The notes beneath the pieces are model-generated. The model made no database searches, was not told the origin of the DNA, and saw nothing but the letters and a program-made list of their open reading frames with translations. This document shows, one piece after another, positions 143 to 40,968 of a stretch of DNA of 64,000 nucleotides. Position 1 is the first letter of the stretch; each line of letters opens with the position of its first letter. The stretch comes from Dethiosulfovibrio faecalis. GTDB lineage: Bacteria > Synergistota > Synergistia > Synergistales > Dethiosulfovibrionaceae. Made by a program: the position numbers and the translations under genes. The stretch covers positions 1-64,000 of the forward strand of contig NZ_JAKGUE010000001.1 in the NCBI RefSeq assembly GCF_021568795.1, in the 5' to 3' direction.

Positions 143-159
143 AAGTGGCGGAGGAGGTG
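143..159 (+). repeat. attL core (17-bp direct repeat)
   Basis: AAGTGGCGGAGGAGGTG here is identical to 40875-40891, where it forms the 3' terminus of tRNA-Ser(CGA). Identity stops at both flanks. This is the displaced tRNA 3' end expected after site-specific integration into a tRNA gene. Confidence 0.9.
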
Positions 160-695: not shown

Positions 696-2582
696 TTAGA
701 TCTCTATCTTTTGATTTCTTTTTAATATTTTTGCCCTGTAGTTTTGTTTGATTTTTTTAGGATAAAATAAAAAAAGTTTTTTTAAATCTATCTTGAATAA
801 CTTGACGCAATAACGAGCGCAATAAGCTAGCATTGCGATAATTCCTGGGAGAATGTAACTGTTTATCTTGTTTATGCAAAAAAGAATGTCTAGTATTTTT
901 TTGTAAAATGTAACTGTTGTTAAAATCAACAGTACTAAAATAGGTATAATTAGCTTTAGAATGAGACCTATAGTAGCTTCTCTTTTTGCCTCTTTTTTCT
1001 CTTGTTCTCTTATAAAATTCATCATGGCTTTGTTTTTATATTTATATGGATTTACGACTTCATCTTTTTTTAGTACTTCGTCAGTTATTAGGTCCTCTTG
1101 TCCTGCAGAAACATCATTTAAACGCTCAAGAGTTTCGTAAGTTTTTAGTAGCCCGTATGATTCTTCGGTAATCAAGCCTTTTGATTGCAGGTTTTGTGCT
1201 TGTTCGAATACTTTTTTGATGAATTTATCATCAGGTTTTGTAATAGAAGAAGCAAGGGCCAAGATTTGTTCTTGGGGAAGATGGGGTTTTTCTAGTGGTA
1301 TTTTTACCCAAGCTATGTTGATTAAGTCAAAATACGTTATTGCAGGTGGTATCGATTTTTCTGACTTTTGTTCTATGTCTATTTGATAAATTTTTGCTGC
1401 TTTTACTAGTGCATGATTTTGAGTAACGAAGATGCATTTACATTCAGATATTTTGTCTCTGTATGTGTCTTTTCTTTCTGAAAAAATGCATCTAATAGAG
1501 TTTATGTCATTTAGTAAGGCTTTTGGGTTTTTGTATTTTATAAATCTTTCAATTATTTCTTGTAATTCAGGCTCATTTATCTGGTATTTTGTATCTTTGT
1601 AACTTGGAGTTTGTACTATGCCCATGTAGTTTGATAGTGTTGTGGTTAGTTCCTTTGATTTTAAAATTAAATCAGATTTCTCTAGCTTTTGTTTTTTTGC
1701 TTCCCAGATAATACTTCCTTCAGCCTTAGGGTTATTGATATTTTTAGCGGCTGTCTCTATAGTAATTTGAGCCTCTTCGATGGAATGAGAAAAGCATTTT
1801 ATGTTGCCGTTTAATTTTTTTATTAAACTAAAAAGAGTTTTCATGGATTCTTCTTCTAATGACCCCTCTAGTCCTATTGTTTTAAAAAGCAATGGCGTAT
1901 CTACGTAAAAAGTAACATTTTTAAAGTTATTTTTTACGTTTTCCTTGTTTAGATCGTTGCAAAACATACTATTTGCAAAAATATTAGCTGTAACTAGTAA
2001 GGAAAAATATTCGAATAGTTCAATGTTGTGCAGGAGTTTATTTTTAATAAAAGAGCTTACTATTTTTATTTTTATATTCTTTTCATCTTTTACATCTGGA
2101 AGTATCGTTGTATTTGTGGAGTCTGAAATCAAACCCATGCAGGGAACTGAAAATTTTGATATGAATAGTATTAGAGCGTCAAGGGCTTCCTGTTTTGTTA
2201 GTGTTATTAGTGTGTTTGAGCTTGTTTTTGTGAACTCATGAAGTTCTGTTGTAAGTTGTTTTATTTTTATAGTGTTATTGCCTATCTCTTTTTTGAGATC
2301 GTGATCTGGGAATTGAATTAAAAAAACATATTTTTTGTTTTTTCGTTTTATTTTTTTTGATTTTATCATTCCCGAAATAGAGAGCTTTACCACTGGAGGA
2401 GGAATAAGTAGGGAGAATTTTTTATTTATTGCTTCAGAAGCTTCGTTCTCATCAAAAGGGACATTATAATCATCTATGCTATTTGTTATGAGTTCTCCTA
2501 TATATTCGTATGAATTGAGCCCCTTGTCAATTTGAGTTTTTAAAATAGCTAGACTGACAAGCGAATTATCAAGGTCATTCAT
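696..2582 (-). CDS. PIN-like nuclease candidate with C-terminal membrane helices
   Basis: The 628-residue frame starts at the ATG at 2582, behind GGAG. Upstream in-frame ATGs at 2594 and 2651 are possible, but the latter overlaps an immA remnant. Around residues 225-232 the motif FYVDTPLLF resembles the first strand and aspartate of PIN-like ribonuclease domains. Further acidic residues follow (IEEA near 269, LND near 359) and the segment FVTQNHALVKA near 385-395 resembles the PIN C-terminal strand. Two hydrophobic helices (about 538-560 and 576-594) precede a Lys-rich tail, so the protein is probably anchored in the inner membrane. The gene is far more AT-rich than everything around it, which points to recent transfer. 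It lies in a prophage accessory slot beside immA and the repressor, where phage-exclusion genes are often carried. A defence role is inference; the nuclease call is moderate. Confidence 0.6.
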   Translation of the reverse strand: MNDLDNSLVSLAILKTQIDKGLNSYEYIGELITNSIDDYNVPFDENEASEAINKKFSLLIPPPVVKLSISGMIKSKKIKRKNKKYVFLIQFPDHDLKKEIGNNTIKIKQLTTELHEFTKTSSNTLITLTKQEALDALILFISKFSVPCMGLISDSTNTTILPDVKDEKNIKIKIVSSFIKNKLLHNIELFEYFSLLVTANIFANSMFCNDLNKENVKNNFKNVTFYVDTPLLFKTIGLEGSLEEESMKTLFSLIKKLNGNIKCFSHSIEEAQITIETAAKNINNPKAEGSIIWEAKKQKLEKSDLILKSKELTTTLSNYMGIVQTPSYKDTKYQINEPELQEIIERFIKYKNPKALLNDINSIRCIFSERKDTYRDKISECKCIFVTQNHALVKAAKIYQIDIEQKSEKSIPPAITYFDLINIAWVKIPLEKPHLPQEQILALASSITKPDDKFIKKVFEQAQNLQSKGLITEESYGLLKTYETLERLNDVSAGQEDLITDEVLKKDEVVNPYKYKNKAMMNFIREQEKKEAKREATIGLILKLIIPILVLLILTTVTFYKKILDILFCINKINSYILPGIIAMLAYCARYCVKLFKIDLKKLFLFYPKKIKQNYRAKILKRNQKIEI

Positions 2583-2637
2583 GTCTAAGGTCATCTCCGT
2601 TCTTTGTCTATACTTTCTTTTTGTCCCCTCTATTATC

Positions 2638-2836
2638 CTATCTCCTTGCATCCTCCAGCCGTATCTGCATAGCCAGAGGGCTGACTCCGAATATCTGCGC
2701 CAGTTGCTTTGTGTCGTGCTTGTAGTGGATCGATTGAAGAGCCGTCTTGGACATAAGGAGTTCCGCCGCGAAGACGTTGGCCGCCTGTTCCGTTCTTGGC
2801 CCCCACGATTTCACAGGGGTCGATGCCTTGCCTTTT
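2638..2836 (-). pseudogene. 3' remnant of an immA/IrrE-type gene
   Basis: Read on the minus strand, this encodes a tail homologous to the intact ImmA at 4419-4880: KSWGPRTEQAANVFAAELL here against ESWLPREEQAANVFAAELL there. It continues to MQIRLEDARR and a stop at 2638-2640. There is no HExxH region and no start; the sequence begins directly after the stop codon of the gene at 2840. The last 141 bp are about 97% identical to the intact gene, while the upstream part is more diverged. It therefore comes from a related immA allele, or has been partly homogenised by recombination. Confidence 0.8.
2651..2791 (-). repeat. Direct repeat copy A (immA 3' segment, 141 bp)
   Basis: This copy aligns without gaps to 4432-4572, with four mismatches seen by eye. 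The two copies bracket the DUF4041/T5orf172 gene. Such repeats could recombine to delete that gene and restore a single immA. Confidence 0.9.
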
Positions 2837-2839
2837 TTC

Positions 2840-4360
2840 CTAATCCGCTGCGACAGCTTCCTCTTCTGTTTCTGCGCCTCCTTCCTCTAGCTCTTCAATC
2901 TCATCGTCGTTCAGGTCGATGAAGTCCTCCAGGGTCAGCTCCCGATTCAGCCAATCCTCTTTTGCTTGTGGATCTTCCTTTATCAGGCGGTCGATGGCCT
3001 GGCTTTCCTGATACTCTTTGGCCTCTGCCGCTATAGTCCACTTCGTCTCTACGCCTATCTCGTCAACTTGCCTGCGGATCTCCTGAAGAGAGGCTCTAAA
3101 GAACTCCTTGCGCCGGTTGACCTTATTGACCTGGGCCAGCGCGAAATGACGGTGTAGGGCATTCTCGAGTGAGGGAGCATCCTCGCTCCAGATCATGGCG
3201 TGTACATCGAACTCGAAGGGTACGCTTGCGTCGCCTAACTCCTTGATGCGGTCGAGGGGCTCCAAACGTCGAGTCATACCGATCTTGTAAACGTCCTCTC
3301 CGAAGGATCCGATATTGGAAATAACATAGACATGGCCGCGTTTAGTCTGCTGTGCCATGGAGATTGCCCTTTGGTTTCTCTCCTCCGCCTCCTTTACCTT
3401 TTGTTCCATCTCGGCAAGGCGATCTTCGTACATGGCCTTCTGTTCCTCGCTGGCATCCTCGTATTCCTTGCGAACCTTCGCCATAGCTTCCTGAAGGATT
3501 TTCTCTTCTTTTTTGGCTTCCTTGATTGCCTTTTCTATCTCCCTTTGCGCTCGTGCCTCTTCACGCATCTGGGTTTTTATCTGGCGTTGTTCCTCTTTTT
3601 CCTGGGCGCGTAACTCCATGACTACGACCATGAGACGTAACTCCTCCAGGCGCAGCGCCAAGTAGTTTTCATCGATATGGGAACTGGAAAATTTTGAGCC
3701 GTTGTAGTTCAGCAGGTTATAGACATCTATGATCTCCTGGTGGAGCTTGCCATAGTTGTCCTGCTTGACTCTGGTGAGGATGGATTCCACCTTGCCGTTG
3801 AACGCCTCCGTTATCAAATTGATAGCGGCGTCTTTTTTATCCTGGTCTTTCAAAGTGGATTTGGCCGAGCGACGGTCTTTTACGGCCCTACGGATAGCCT
3901 TACGGATGTCTTTCAGTCCTTCGGCGGTCTTCTTGTACCCGTATTCTTCCGCCAGCTCGTCTACGAGGGAACTTCGGGGAATAATGTATCTGTCCCCATA
4001 GCCTTCGATATGGTTCTTGATGGCTGTGAGGGTGTTTTTATAAGATTTTATCTCGCGCTGAACCTCCAGGCTTTTTTCTTTAAGCCTGGAAAGTTCTTCG
4101 TTGACATCGCGAATTGGACGGTACTTAATAAGAGTCTGATTCTCTTCGTAAAGTTTGACGTTTTCAGACAGGACTTTCTTTCGCTCTTCCTGACCTTCCT
4201 TGTATTCCTTGATGTGTTGAGCTTGGATGATTTTCAATGTTTCAATGGTCTTATTGGCCTTCTCAAGTTTTTGGTTGGCCTCCTTGAAACTTGATTGGAA
4301 GGTGATAGTTCCTAAAAAGAAGATAAGCAGTAACACGATATAAAAGATAGTCACCGGCAA
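2840..4360 (-). CDS. DUF4041 / T5orf172 GIY-YIG-like protein, membrane-anchored
   Basis: 506 aa from a TTG at 4360 (a GTG two codons on is possible). An N-terminal hydrophobic helix (about 4-22) is followed by coiled coil (25-110), a DUF4041-like helical region (about 115-250), a second long charged coiled coil (250-335), and a T5orf172 domain. That domain shows GHVYVIS at 342-348, VYKIGMTRR at 357-365, HRHF near 403 and KEFF near 418. T5orf172 is a GIY-YIG-superfamily fold found in phage and restriction-related proteins. The tail is very acidic (EEGGAETEEEA). The gene is inserted between an immA remnant and intact immA. Base composition is close to the prophage average, unlike its AT-rich neighbour. 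The molecular role is unknown; membrane tethering of a nuclease-like domain suggests phage exclusion, which is inference. Confidence 0.7.
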   Translation of the reverse strand: MPVTIFYIVLLLIFFLGTITFQSSFKEANQKLEKANKTIETLKIIQAQHIKEYKEGQEERKKVLSENVKLYEENQTLIKYRPIRDVNEELSRLKEKSLEVQREIKSYKNTLTAIKNHIEGYGDRYIIPRSSLVDELAEEYGYKKTAEGLKDIRKAIRRAVKDRRSAKSTLKDQDKKDAAINLITEAFNGKVESILTRVKQDNYGKLHQEIIDVYNLLNYNGSKFSSSHIDENYLALRLEELRLMVVVMELRAQEKEEQRQIKTQMREEARAQREIEKAIKEAKKEEKILQEAMAKVRKEYEDASEEQKAMYEDRLAEMEQKVKEAEERNQRAISMAQQTKRGHVYVISNIGSFGEDVYKIGMTRRLEPLDRIKELGDASVPFEFDVHAMIWSEDAPSLENALHRHFALAQVNKVNRRKEFFRASLQEIRRQVDEIGVETKWTIAAEAKEYQESQAIDRLIKEDPQAKEDWLNRELTLEDFIDLNDDEIEELEEGGAETEEEAVAAD

Positions 4361-4418
4361 TACACGCCCTTTCTACGTGCAATGCCCCTCCAGGGGAACC
4401 CCATTCCCCCTATTGTTT

Positions 4419-4880
4419 CTACCTCCCAATTTCCTCCAGCCGTATCTGCATAGCCAGAGGGCTGACTCCGAATATCTGCGCCAGTTGCTTTGTGTCGTGC
4501 TTGTAGTGGATCGATTGAAGAGCTGTCTTGGGCATTAGGAGTTCTGCCGCGAAGACGTTGGCCGCCTGTTCCTCTCGAGGAAGCCATGATTCCGGAGAGT
4601 CCAGGGAAAAGGCGGCTGGGTGGCCGAGGACATAGTGTCCCAGTTCGTGAGCCACGGTGAAGCGGCGGCGTTCGTAGGGTAGGGCGGTGGAGACAAGGAT
4701 AATCTTTCGGTCTCCGTGGATGAAGAGGGTGCCGTCGATGTGTCTGGCTTTACTGTGGCAGATTTCGATCCCCAGCTTCCGACAGAGCTTGCTCAGCCGA
4801 ATGGGGATCATCCGTTCCATTCCGTATTTGCCTAGCAGGGTTCGGGCCATGACCCGGATCCTGGTTCCGTTGTTTGTCAT
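4419..4880 (-). CDS. immA: ImmA/IrrE-type metalloprotease
   Basis: 153 aa with the zinc protease signature VAHELGHY around residues 76-83 and the family's EEQAANVFAAELLMP block. ImmA proteins cleave CI-like repressors of integrative elements in response to DNA damage, so this is the probable inducer of the adjacent repressor at 4930-5565. It follows the repressor with a gap of about 50 bp in the same direction, the usual immR-immA order. Its last 141 bp are duplicated at 2651-2791. Confidence 0.88.
   Translation of the reverse strand: MTNNGTRIRVMARTLLGKYGMERMIPIRLSKLCRKLGIEICHSKARHIDGTLFIHGDRKIILVSTALPYERRRFTVAHELGHYVLGHPAAFSLDSPESWLPREEQAANVFAAELLMPKTALQSIHYKHDTKQLAQIFGVSPLAMQIRLEEIGR
4432..4572 (-). 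repeat. Direct repeat copy B (inside immA 3' end)
   Basis: The partner of 2651-2791, of equal length and without indels. Homology ends at the GGAGGA six codons before the immA stop, which marks a recombination breakpoint. Confidence 0.9.
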
Positions 4881-4929
4881 TCAATCCTCCTGCGCTTGGT
4901 CTTTGGAATTTGCCTCTATCGCCTCCCTA

Positions 4930-5565
4930 TCAGTACTCATCCGTATGGTCCTCCAGCGTGATCTTGCCCAGTGCCGCTTTGAAGAGCGTTGCCAGGAACT
5001 CCCGGTCTTCCGGGGCCAGCCTGGTGACGTTCTTGGCCACGTGGCGGAACTTCAGGACTATGTCCGGATCCTCCGCCGCCAGCATCTTCATCAGAGTTTC
5101 GAGGTCTTCCTCGCTCTGTCCCTTCTTTTTCTCCGTCTCCTGCTGTGTTTCTCCGTCCCGGGCCGAAAGGTACCTTCCGTAGGCTTTGATGAGCTTCTGC
5201 TTGAGGACGCTATCCGCCCGATCCTCATATTTTTCCATCAGCTCGAGGTCCTCCGCCGGGAGATCTATCAATGCGGCGGCCTCGTCAAGTGAGAGCCCGG
5301 TTTCCTGCCTCATAGGGGCCAGTATGCCGCTGGGAACCTGCCTATCGGCTTTCTGTGGCGATGGATCGTTGGTTTCACCCATGAAGTAACCCGTCGGAAC
5401 TCCGAGAGCTCTTGCTATAAAAGAGGCTTGGATTATGTCGGGTACAGTTAAGCCTTTCTCCCACCTTTGCACGGTAGACCTAGATGCATTGCATTTTTCT
5501 GCAAGCTCTTCTTGGGACATACCGCATTTTTGGCGCATACCTTTGATTCGTTCATTAACCTTCAC
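4930..5565 (-). CDS. CI/ImmR-like prophage repressor
   Basis: 211 aa from the GTG at 5565, placed behind GGGTGG. The longer upstream frame has no ribosome site and would cover the promoter. Residues 1-60 form an XRE helix-turn-helix (MRQKCGMSQEELAEKCNASR). A linker follows, then a C-terminal helical region with EEDLETLMKMLAAEDPDIVLKF. No Ser/Lys autoprotease domain is visible, consistent with cleavage by the ImmA encoded next to it rather than RecA-stimulated self-cleavage. It is transcribed leftward, divergent from the Cro-like gene, and its promoter contains a repressor half-site in the spacer, suggesting autoregulation. Confidence 0.85.
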   Translation of the reverse strand: MKVNERIKGMRQKCGMSQEELAEKCNASRSTVQRWEKGLTVPDIIQASFIARALGVPTGYFMGETNDPSPQKADRQVPSGILAPMRQETGLSLDEAAALIDLPAEDLELMEKYEDRADSVLKQKLIKAYGRYLSARDGETQQETEKKKGQSEEDLETLMKMLAAEDPDIVLKFRHVAKNVTRLAPEDREFLATLFKAALGKITLEDHTDEY

Positions 5566-5590
5566 GATATATCCACCCTTTCCCCATTGC

Positions 5591-5619
5591 ATTGTCGCAA
5601 ATATGATGCAACGACTCAA
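5591..5619 (-). promoter_or_regulatory. Promoter of the repressor gene (PRM-like)
   Basis: On the minus strand TTGAGT (5614-5619) and GACAAT (5591-5596) are separated by 17 bp. The spacer contains GCATCATAT, the same half-site as in the operator at 5683-5698, so repressor bound here would contact or block the promoter. Confidence 0.6.
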
Positions 5620-12875: not shown

Positions 12876-13538
12876 TTGAAATACACGAGTCCCTTCCGAG
12901 GCAGGAGGCAGATCAACCGGATGAAGCGGGCCATTCTGGAAAGGCCGGGGAGATTCAGCCGGGAGGCGGCTTTGAGGGATTACGCCCTTTTCGTCTTCGG
13001 GATCAATTCGGCCCTCCGGATCGGAGATCTGCTCGACCTCAAGGTGGACGACGTCCTGGCCGGTAGAAGCTGTCGTCTCAGGATAGAGGAGGAAATACGG
13101 CTTCGGGAGGGAAAGACCGGTAACATCCGGACGTTCCCCCTCGTAGACAAAAGCCGGGAGGCCCTAAAGGACTATCTGCGCTACAGGAAGGATCTCAGGG
13201 GCTTGGCTAGAGACGAGCCCCTATGGGCCGCCGTCCGCCGAAAGGGAGAGGATATGCGGGCCATATCGAGGATGCAGGTCTACCGGATGCTGAACGATGC
13301 GGCGGTACGAGCCAACGAGGCATCGCCTCCGGCGGAGCGGATCAACCTTCGAACCACGTCCATCGGCTGTCACTCCATGAGGAAGACCCTGGGGTACATG
13401 CTCTATTACGAGGGTGATTCGGTGCCTCTGGCGGATATCCAGACCATGTACGGCCACTCGTCGGAGAAGGTTACTCTGCGTTATCTGGGCATCACGAAAG
13501 AGATAACGGACGGCCACTACAGGGCCTTGAATCTGTGA
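12876..13538 (+). CDS. Short tyrosine recombinase
   Basis: 220 aa from TTG 12876. The catalytic elements of the tyrosine recombinase fold are present: the first Arg in NSALRIGDLL, Lys in EGKTGNIRTF, HSMRK (H-x2-R), GHSS and the Tyr in LRYLGI. It lacks the N-terminal arm- and core-binding domains of integrases, so it is a catalytic-domain-only form. It sits just upstream of the terminase rather than at an att site, and a full integrase exists at 39516. Likely a phage resolvase-like or accessory recombinase. Function not established. Confidence 0.8.
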   Translation: MKYTSPFRGRRQINRMKRAILERPGRFSREAALRDYALFVFGINSALRIGDLLDLKVDDVLAGRSCRLRIEEEIRLREGKTGNIRTFPLVDKSREALKDYLRYRKDLRGLARDEPLWAAVRRKGEDMRAISRMQVYRMLNDAAVRANEASPPAERINLRTTSIGCHSMRKTLGYMLYYEGDSVPLADIQTMYGHSSEKVTLRYLGITKEITDGHYRALNL

Positions 13539-39515: not shown

Positions 39516-40649
39516 CTATGGTCTAATCTCTTCTCTTTGTTCGTCTAGCCAGTCTGCCCACCATTGCATAAGCTCACGTCGTTGAGGCAGATATTCGGCG
39601 TGGTTGTAGGCGGCTCGTACGGCGTTCTTGGGGACGTGTGCGAGCTGCCTTTCTATGACGTCCGGTGGCCAGCCATGCTCGTTGGCGATTGTCGAGAACA
39701 TCGAACGGAATCCGTGACCGGTCATCTCCTCTTGAGTGTATCCTAATCTGCGTAAAGCAGCTAAAACGGTGGCGTCGGACATCGGCTTGACCGTAGACCT
39801 TATCGATGGAAAAAGATACTGGGATTTGCCGGAGATCTCCTTGAGCTTATTGAGGACCTCTACTGTTTGACGTGATAAGGGGACCCAGTGAACTCGTTTC
39901 ATCTTCATCTTTTCAGCCGGTATTTTCCAGGTGGCGTCGTCGAATTCAATCCATTCTGCCTTCCTCAATTCGCCAGGTCGGGCAAATGTGTATGCCTGGA
40001 ATAAGAGTGCGTACTTGATCTGTCCAACCAATCCGGCATCGATATCTCTCATGAGTTGCCCAATCCGGGCGGGGTCGGTGATGGTGGCCATGTGGGTAGT
40101 CTTGACCGGTTGCAGGGCTCCCTTGAGGTCGGCGGCGACATCTCTGTCGCACCTTCCTGTTGCCACTCCGTATCTAAGGATCTGCCCACACATCTGGCGA
40201 GTTCGTCTGGCGGTTTCTATAGTTCCTCTGGCCTCTATTTTCCTGATAACTTGCAGCAACTCTGGAGCTGTAAGGGATCGGACGATTTTATCCCCTATAT
40301 GGGGAATTAGCAGGGTGTCTATTTTATAGACCAGAGTCTCTATATATCGAGGCGCTTTCGTCGGTCTCATACGGACCGCAAGCCATTCGTGGGCCAGTTT
40401 TGCGAAGGTTGTGTCTGTGGGGGATGTTGAAGACGATTTGATCTCATCTCTTATCTGACGAGCTTTCATGAGGGAGACCCCAGGATATTCTCCTAAGGTC
40501 TTTTTGCTCTCTTTTCCGTTCTTCCAGATCCTAAGTTTCCATACCTTTCTACCTGTAGGACGAATCTCCAGAGACAGGCCCCTTTCGTCCACCAGCCGGA
40601 TAACCTTATCGCCCGGTTTTGTTTTGCGTATTTCAACGTCAGTGATCAC
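39516..40649 (-). CDS. int: P4-type tyrosine integrase
   Basis: 377 aa. An N-terminal DUF4102-like arm-binding domain (LSLEIRPTGRKVWKLR, KKTLGEYPGVSLMKAR) is followed by a core-binding domain and a catalytic domain with FARPGELR (Arg), HGFRSMFST (H-x2-R), QLAHVPKN (His) and AAYNHAEY (Tyr). It is adjacent to attR in tRNA-Ser(CGA), its target. Candidate arm sites lie upstream at 40684-40733 and at 225-244. Confidence 0.95.
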   Translation of the reverse strand: MITDVEIRKTKPGDKVIRLVDERGLSLEIRPTGRKVWKLRIWKNGKESKKTLGEYPGVSLMKARQIRDEIKSSSTSPTDTTFAKLAHEWLAVRMRPTKAPRYIETLVYKIDTLLIPHIGDKIVRSLTAPELLQVIRKIEARGTIETARRTRQMCGQILRYGVATGRCDRDVAADLKGALQPVKTTHMATITDPARIGQLMRDIDAGLVGQIKYALLFQAYTFARPGELRKAEWIEFDDATWKIPAEKMKMKRVHWVPLSRQTVEVLNKLKEISGKSQYLFPSIRSTVKPMSDATVLAALRRLGYTQEEMTGHGFRSMFSTIANEHGWPPDVIERQLAHVPKNAVRAAYNHAEYLPQRRELMQWWADWLDEQREEIRP

Positions 40650-40874: not shown

Positions 40875-40891
40875 AAGTGGCGGAGGAGGTG
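40875..40891 (+). repeat. attR core (17-bp direct repeat)
   Basis: Identical to 143-159 and overlapping the last 14 nt of tRNA-Ser(CGA), including the CCA end. Integration thus leaves an intact tRNA. Confidence 0.9.
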
Positions 40892-40968
40892 GGATTTGAA
40901 CCCACGGAGGAGCAGAGCCCCTCACTTGATTTCGAGTCAAGCGCCTTCGACCGCTCGGCCACTCCTCC
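40878..40968 (-). tRNA. tRNA-Ser(CGA), prophage attachment site
   Basis: 91 nt on the minus strand, 5' GGAGGAGTGGCCGAG to 3' CTCCTCC-G-CCA with CCA encoded. The anticodon loop CTCGAAA gives anticodon CGA. The long variable arm is typical of serine tRNA. Confidence 0.95.

What the first reader, a model, noticed from the sequence alone, without database searches (positions are those of the whole stretch)
2638..4572. Duplicated immA tail brackets a cargo gene: a recombination-driven accessory slot
The last 141 bp of intact immA (4432-4572) recur at 2651-2791 with four mismatches and no gaps. Between the copies lies the DUF4041/T5orf172 gene, and beyond the remnant lies the AT-rich PIN-like gene. 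The remnant also extends upstream as more diverged immA-like coding sequence. The simplest reading is that cargo genes enter this slot by homologous recombination within immA. Each brings its own immA 3' end, pushing older cargo outward and leaving a scar. That would be a general mechanism for stacking prophage defence genes beside the immunity region.
Basis: partly seen in the sequence, partly recalled or inferred. Interest (0 to 1): 0.78.

Follow-up and report, generated by a model that had tools for sequence, protein, structure and literature searches.

The report
Prophage defence slot with recombination scars
In this prophage a broken leftover of the immA immunity gene separates two stacked accessory genes; related prophages in the same genus carry different defence genes at the same place and similar leftovers of the immunity genes, so this is a gene-swapping spot whose recombination history can still be read.

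Summary
The repeat is real: 2651-2791 equals 4432-4572 at 137/141 positions. The remnant (2638-2810, minus strand) covers immA nt 290-462 and lies 30 bp past the stop of the DUF4041 gene, a homologue of the known defence gene PD-Lambda-1. Five genomes of the genus carry the same cI-immA operon in prophages. Foreign genes sit between cI and immA (slot A) and between immA and attL or integrase (slot B). immA stays about 76-97% identical while both flanks change. Many cargo genes match defence families (RM, PD-Lambda-1, PD-Lambda-5, IetAS, SIR2-like). Truncated cI or immA pieces occur at cargo junctions in three other genomes, one a single-contig assembly. The slot, the scars and breakpoints inside immA are supported. 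Defence hotspots beside cI and integrase are already known. New are the readable scars of cargo stacking and a hairpin shared by eight slots.

The parts
4930..5619 (-). cI-type repressor (HTH_3); its C-terminal part is conserved among the related prophages
   Evidence: Pfam; comparisons
4881..4929 (.). slot A (cI-immA gap), empty here (49 bp); holds cargo genes in L033, L036, L038 and L039
4419..4880 (-). intact immA (Peptidase_M78, 153 aa)
4432..4572 (-). repeat copy 1, inside intact immA
2840..4360 (-). cargo gene, PD-Lambda-1 homologue (DUF4041 + MUG113/T5orf172-type domain, 506 aa)
2638..2810 (-). immA remnant (immA nt 290-462), the scar
2651..2791 (-). repeat copy 2, inside the remnant
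696..2651 (-). outer cargo gene, 651 aa, 31% GC, function not recognised
143..159 (.). attL core (17 bp), outer border of slot B
40875..40891 (.). attR core, at the 3' end of tRNA-Ser(cga) 40878-40968
39516..40649 (-). tyrosine integrase of the prophage

Best explanation
The cI-immA operon at the attL end of this prophage is an accessory-gene (largely defence-gene) hotspot shared by a family of prophages in one bacterial genus. Cargo sits in two slots: between cI and immA, and between immA and attP/integrase. Contents change in two ways. (1) Homologous exchange inside conserved anchors (the cI 3' part, immA, perhaps a short hairpin after immA) swaps cargo and mostly leaves no trace. (2) Misaligned, non-homologous crossovers between two such prophages (resident, superinfecting or co-resident) add cargo: the cargo end of one prophage is joined to the middle of an anchor gene of the other, leaving a truncated anchor. 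The window is a product of type 2: [cI-immA-PD-Lambda-1] joined to [immA 3' end-651-aa gene-attL]. Shown: the slots, the different cargo, breakpoints inside immA and cI, scars in four genomes, att-bounded slot B in three prophages. Inferred: the number of crossovers, the partner prophages, the enzymes, and that selection for intact cI/immA and for useful cargo keeps the products.
For: Same cI-immA operon with different cargo in both slots in 5 genomes; immA homology stops at its start codon and at about nt 449-482. L036/L039: 98% identical cro-cI, different slot A, immA homologous only from nt 107; L037/L038: 96-97% identical cI 3' part and immA and 96% identical integrase side, different cargo. 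Scars: L033 (immA1 broken at nt 355; 15-nt cI tail before immA2), L157 (30-nt cI piece; cI tail + immA start), L163 (43-nt immA tail), L164 (last 16 nt of immA). The remnant meets the outer gene at immA nt 449, the usual slot-B joint. Defence-type cargo. Shared outer att core in the window, L035 and L036.
Against: Neither partner prophage of the window ([cI-immA-PD-Lambda-1-attL] or [immA-651-aa gene-attL]) was found. Several cargo genes have no defence match. The 92 mismatch-free bp next to the immA stop hint that homologous exchange or conversion also acted in the tail. Only seven genus genomes were available.
Confidence: 0.62

Rival explanations
1. One reading: incoming cargo enters by homologous recombination within immA, bringing its own immA 3' end and pushing older cargo outward. 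Close variants are homology-facilitated illegitimate recombination (one homologous and one illegitimate joint) and a Campbell-type single crossover of a circle carrying an immA tail plus PD-Lambda-1.
For: Identical 92 bp at the tail end with the four mismatches clustered (P 0.013 for all four in the far 49 bp; 0.067 for any such run); 5' of that the remnant sides with other alleles against the intact copy at several sites. Crossovers inside immA did occur in L039.
Against: The DUF4041-remnant joint has no immA homology on the DUF4041 side, so a second, non-homologous joint is needed anyway; a single misaligned crossover is simpler. Scars also begin in cI (L033, L157).
Confidence: 0.25
2. Site-specific or cassette-like insertion: a recombination site (such as the hairpin after immA) and a dedicated recombinase insert cargo.
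For: The hairpin CACCGCCAGGGGTGGCGG (up to 2 mismatches) occurs 8 times in 7 genomes, every time in a cI-adjacent cargo slot.
Against: The window slot has no such hairpin; joints lie at scattered places in immA (nt 107, 290, 355, about 420, 449) and cI; no recombinase gene was recognised among the cargo. With a T-run in L163 the hairpin reads as an ordinary terminator.
Confidence: 0.05
3. Assembly artefact: two prophages wrongly joined at the shared immA tail.
For: The genome is a draft of 43 contigs.
Against: A wrong join inside the repeat would give immA directly followed by the outer gene, not DUF4041 joined to the middle of immA with no repeat at that joint. The copies differ at 4 sites in 141 bp. 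Comparable scars occur in G004 (1 contig) and G001 (3 contigs).
Confidence: 0.03
4. The remnant is kept for a function, for example translational coupling or a start region for the outer gene.
For: It keeps an open frame of 58 aa, and its stop (2638) overlaps the start of the listed downstream ORF (2651).
Against: Scars elsewhere are of different genes, parts and lengths; a short open frame is expected for a young remnant; the outer gene has further possible starts downstream (seen in the sequence).
Confidence: 0.04

Closest known systems
Prophage antiviral hotspots between cI and integrase (K139-like Vibrio phages) and between a regulator and a peptidase next to the integrase (Bacillus prophages), Rousset et al. 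2022, PMC9122126
   Same: Variable defence genes in the repressor-integrase interval of related prophages
   Different: Here two slots around immA, and truncated cI/immA pieces mark individual joining events
P2 and P4 defence hotspots (PMC9122126; Vassallo et al. 2022, PMC9519451)
   Same: Exchangeable defence genes at a fixed phage locus; DUF4041 defence protein described there
   Different: Located at cos or portal-proximal sites, exchange proposed through cos and homologous flanks; no immunity-gene scars found in the passages read
Phage mosaicism by short conserved boundary sequences or illegitimate recombination (discussed in PMC3029335)
   Same: Sharp joints at gene edges; a short conserved hairpin next to several joints
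   Different: Repeated at one operon with partial anchor genes left between stacked cargoes
Homology-facilitated illegitimate recombination (PMC3240628)
   Same: One homologous plus one illegitimate joint could give this structure
   Different: Described for linear DNA in transformation and conjugation; not shown here

Membership tests
Prophage defence hotspot (repressor-integrase/att type) | Same conserved phage genes on both sides in related prophages | tested here: met
   cI and immA on one side, att core or integrase on the other
Prophage defence hotspot (repressor-integrase/att type) | Different cargo at the same place in different prophages | tested here: met
   Slots differ in all loci compared; only L033 and L036 share a restriction block
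Prophage defence hotspot (repressor-integrase/att type) | Cargo includes known defence families | tested here: met
   PD-Lambda-1, PD-Lambda-5_A, RM, Vsr, IetAS, PDC families
Prophage defence hotspot (repressor-integrase/att type) | Cargo protects against phages | not testable with these tools
   Needs plaque assays
PD-Lambda-1 (gene 2840-4360) | Full-length match to the PADLOC model, DUF4041 plus C-terminal nuclease-type domain | tested here: met
   E 9.7e-119 over residues 6-466 of 506; MUG113 and DUF4041 in Pfam
ImmA/IrrE family (gene 4419-4880) | Peptidase_M78 domain with HExxH, next to a cI-type repressor | tested here: met
   E 5.4e-22, HELGH in the protein
PIN-domain protein (gene 696-2651) | Match to a PIN family or fold | tested here: inconclusive
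   No family match; structure model unusable
Integron-like cassette system | Constant recombination site at every cassette joint plus a dedicated recombinase | tested here: not met
   Joints scattered in immA and cI; hairpin missing at the window joints; no recombinase recognised in the slots

The most novel reading that the evidence does not exclude
The cI-immA-hairpin segment is itself an evolved cargo-capture platform: conserved anchors and a terminator hairpin act as joints at which prophages repeatedly swap and stack defence genes, and successive scars record the order of acquisition.
Probability: 0.25. Interest if true: 0.72.

Novelty: new variant of a known kind. Interest (0 to 1): 0.55.

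Why it matters
How prophages refill defence hotspots is mostly inferred from end states. Here truncated immunity genes between cargoes show individual joining events, locate breakpoints to a few bases and point to prophage-prophage recombination in the immunity operon as the way cargo is stacked. The 141-bp direct repeat also makes a direct prediction: PD-Lambda-1 should be lost by recombination between the two immA tails, leaving cI-immA-651-aa gene.

Tried and rejected
Assembly artefact: argued against, since comparable scars occur in other and better assembled genomes. Fixed recombination site: rejected for the window, although a hairpin recurs at eight slots. Generality: immA compared with the rest of its own locus in 123 loci gave only the known G001 copy (L120) plus two short repeats of sequence outside immA or in inverted orientation; L076 proved to be a repeated stretch upstream of immA. 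Genome-wide and viral searches with immA gave distant relatives only, apart from L120, which is the G001 locus itself. Donors of the 651-aa gene: none in viral contigs, phages or 188 genomes of the phylum; only 21-28% identical proteins on plasmids, one of which also has no Pfam match. Structure model of the 651-aa protein: unusable. Function of the remnant itself: considered, no support. An E. coli generality test was dropped because the immA homologues found in two coliphage records are not in a recognisable cI-immA pair. First cargo scans with wrong coordinates failed.

Full report
Observation. The minus strand reads cI (4930-5619), immA (4419-4880), a DUF4041/MUG113 gene (2840-4360), an immA remnant (2638-2810) and an AT-rich 651-aa ORF (696-2651). 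The repeat 2651-2791 versus 4432-4572 is 141 bp, ungapped, with four mismatches. Homology beyond 2791 fades and ends at about 2810, 30 bp past the stop of the DUF4041 gene. The remnant is thus immA nt 290-462, still recognisable as Peptidase_M78. No third copy was found in the genome.

Setting. The element is a prophage bounded by a 17-bp att core at 143-159 and 40875-40891, the latter at the 3' end of tRNA-Ser(cga), with its integrase at 39516-40649 next to attR. The cargo region therefore lies between immA and attL. The contig starts at a repeated sequence, probably an IS end, outside the prophage.

Relatives. Five genomes of the genus (the window's own, G001, G003, G004 and G005) carry close immA copies. 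In the loci compared, cI and immA are kept while the genes between cI and immA (slot A, 17-2233 bp) and after immA (slot B, 1.3-5.2 kb where its outer end was located) differ. DNA homology of immA runs from its start codon to about nt 449-482 and stops. In several loci the last few codons and the stop codon of immA are unlike those of the other copies, so those joints lie inside the end of immA. L035, L036 and the window share the same outer att core, yet their slot B genes differ.

Cargo. The window DUF4041 gene is a PD-Lambda-1 homologue. Others: type II RM genes and Vsr, SIR2-like PDC-S21, PIN_8, UvrD/PD-(D/E)XK with a methylase, PDC-M59A, PD-Lambda-5_A, DUF6932/PDC-M63A, Mrr-like, SLFN/AlbA, IetAS. 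Some cargo has no match.

Homologous exchange inside anchors. L036 and L039 (different species) are 98.2% identical through cro and cI, have different slot A genes, and become homologous again only at immA nt 107. L037 and L038 have a 96-97% identical cI C-terminal part and immA, and a 96% identical integrase region, with different cargo in both slots. In several pairs the cI N-terminal (HTH) part differs while the C-terminal part is kept.

Scars. Beside the window: L033 (G001) has cI, a PIN_8 gene, immA1 broken at nt 355, other sequence, then a 15-nt cI tail with a second immA and a SIR2-like/RM block. L157 (G005) has a different cI, a PD-Lambda-1 homologue, a 30-nt cI piece, a 156-aa gene, then a cI tail with the immA start, then IetAS. 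L163 (G004) has an unrelated cI, an Mrr-like gene, a 43-nt immA tail with a terminator hairpin, then a SLFN/AlbA gene. L164 (G004) has only the last 16 nt of immA after cI. The hairpin occurs eight times in the seven genus genomes at up to two mismatches, always in such a slot, against five hits of the reversed control pattern.

Mechanism. The scar joint (DUF4041 end to immA nt 290) is non-homologous. One misaligned crossover between [cI-immA-PD-Lambda-1...] and [cI-immA-651-aa gene-attL] gives the window in one step, and also explains why most scars keep the 3' part of the anchor followed by other cargo. The remnant meets the 651-aa gene at immA nt 449, the usual slot-B joint, so that gene was probably once the direct neighbour of a whole immA. 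A homologous step inside immA is possible: the 92 bp nearest the stop are identical and the four mismatches cluster, but the support is weak (P 0.013 to 0.067). Because a crossover joins two existing arms, the window alone does not tell whether the outer gene is older.

Limits. Seven genus genomes were available, five with close immA copies, all seen only as sequence. Donors were not found. Among 122 distant immA loci none showed a duplicated immA segment, so the process is shown for one genus only.

Known versus new. Defence hotspots beside cI and integrase, including one between a regulator and a peptidase in Bacillus prophages, are published (PMC9122126), and phage mosaicism by conserved boundaries or illegitimate joints has long been discussed (PMC3029335). 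The readable partial immunity genes between stacked cargoes, the two-slot layout around immA and the shared hairpin are the new details. Only open-licence papers could be searched, so earlier reports in other journals may exist.

Noticed in passing
L037, L038, L039, L157, L163, L164, L165, L166 (cI-adjacent slots): A hairpin CACCGCCAGGGGTGGCGG (up to 2 mismatches) recurs eight times in the genus, always in cI-adjacent cargo slots, usually without a T-run (L163 has one). It may be a leftover terminator or a short recombination joint.
   Followed up: partly
L157:4837-10998 (G005 contig 9): A PD-Lambda-1 homologue and an IetAS pair are stacked with two cI fragments between them; both fragments begin at the same cI nucleotide.
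   Followed up: partly
L033:7575-7934: Imperfect tandem repeats (offsets of 63, 126 and 189 bp) in the ORF following the broken immA1.
   Followed up: no
L034:7849-7927 (G001): An isolated 79-bp immA fragment (92% identical) beside what looks like an integrase fragment near the end of another prophage.
   Followed up: partly
window 12876-13538 (+): A second Phage_integrase-family protein (220 aa) inside the prophage early region.
   Followed up: no
L033:12235-14208 and L036:8598-10569: The same restriction gene block (92% identical DNA) lies behind different first cargo genes in two species, although their immA genes are only 83% identical.
   Followed up: partly
L160, L151: PD-Lambda-1 relatives in other lineages also lie near cI-type regulators.
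   Followed up: no
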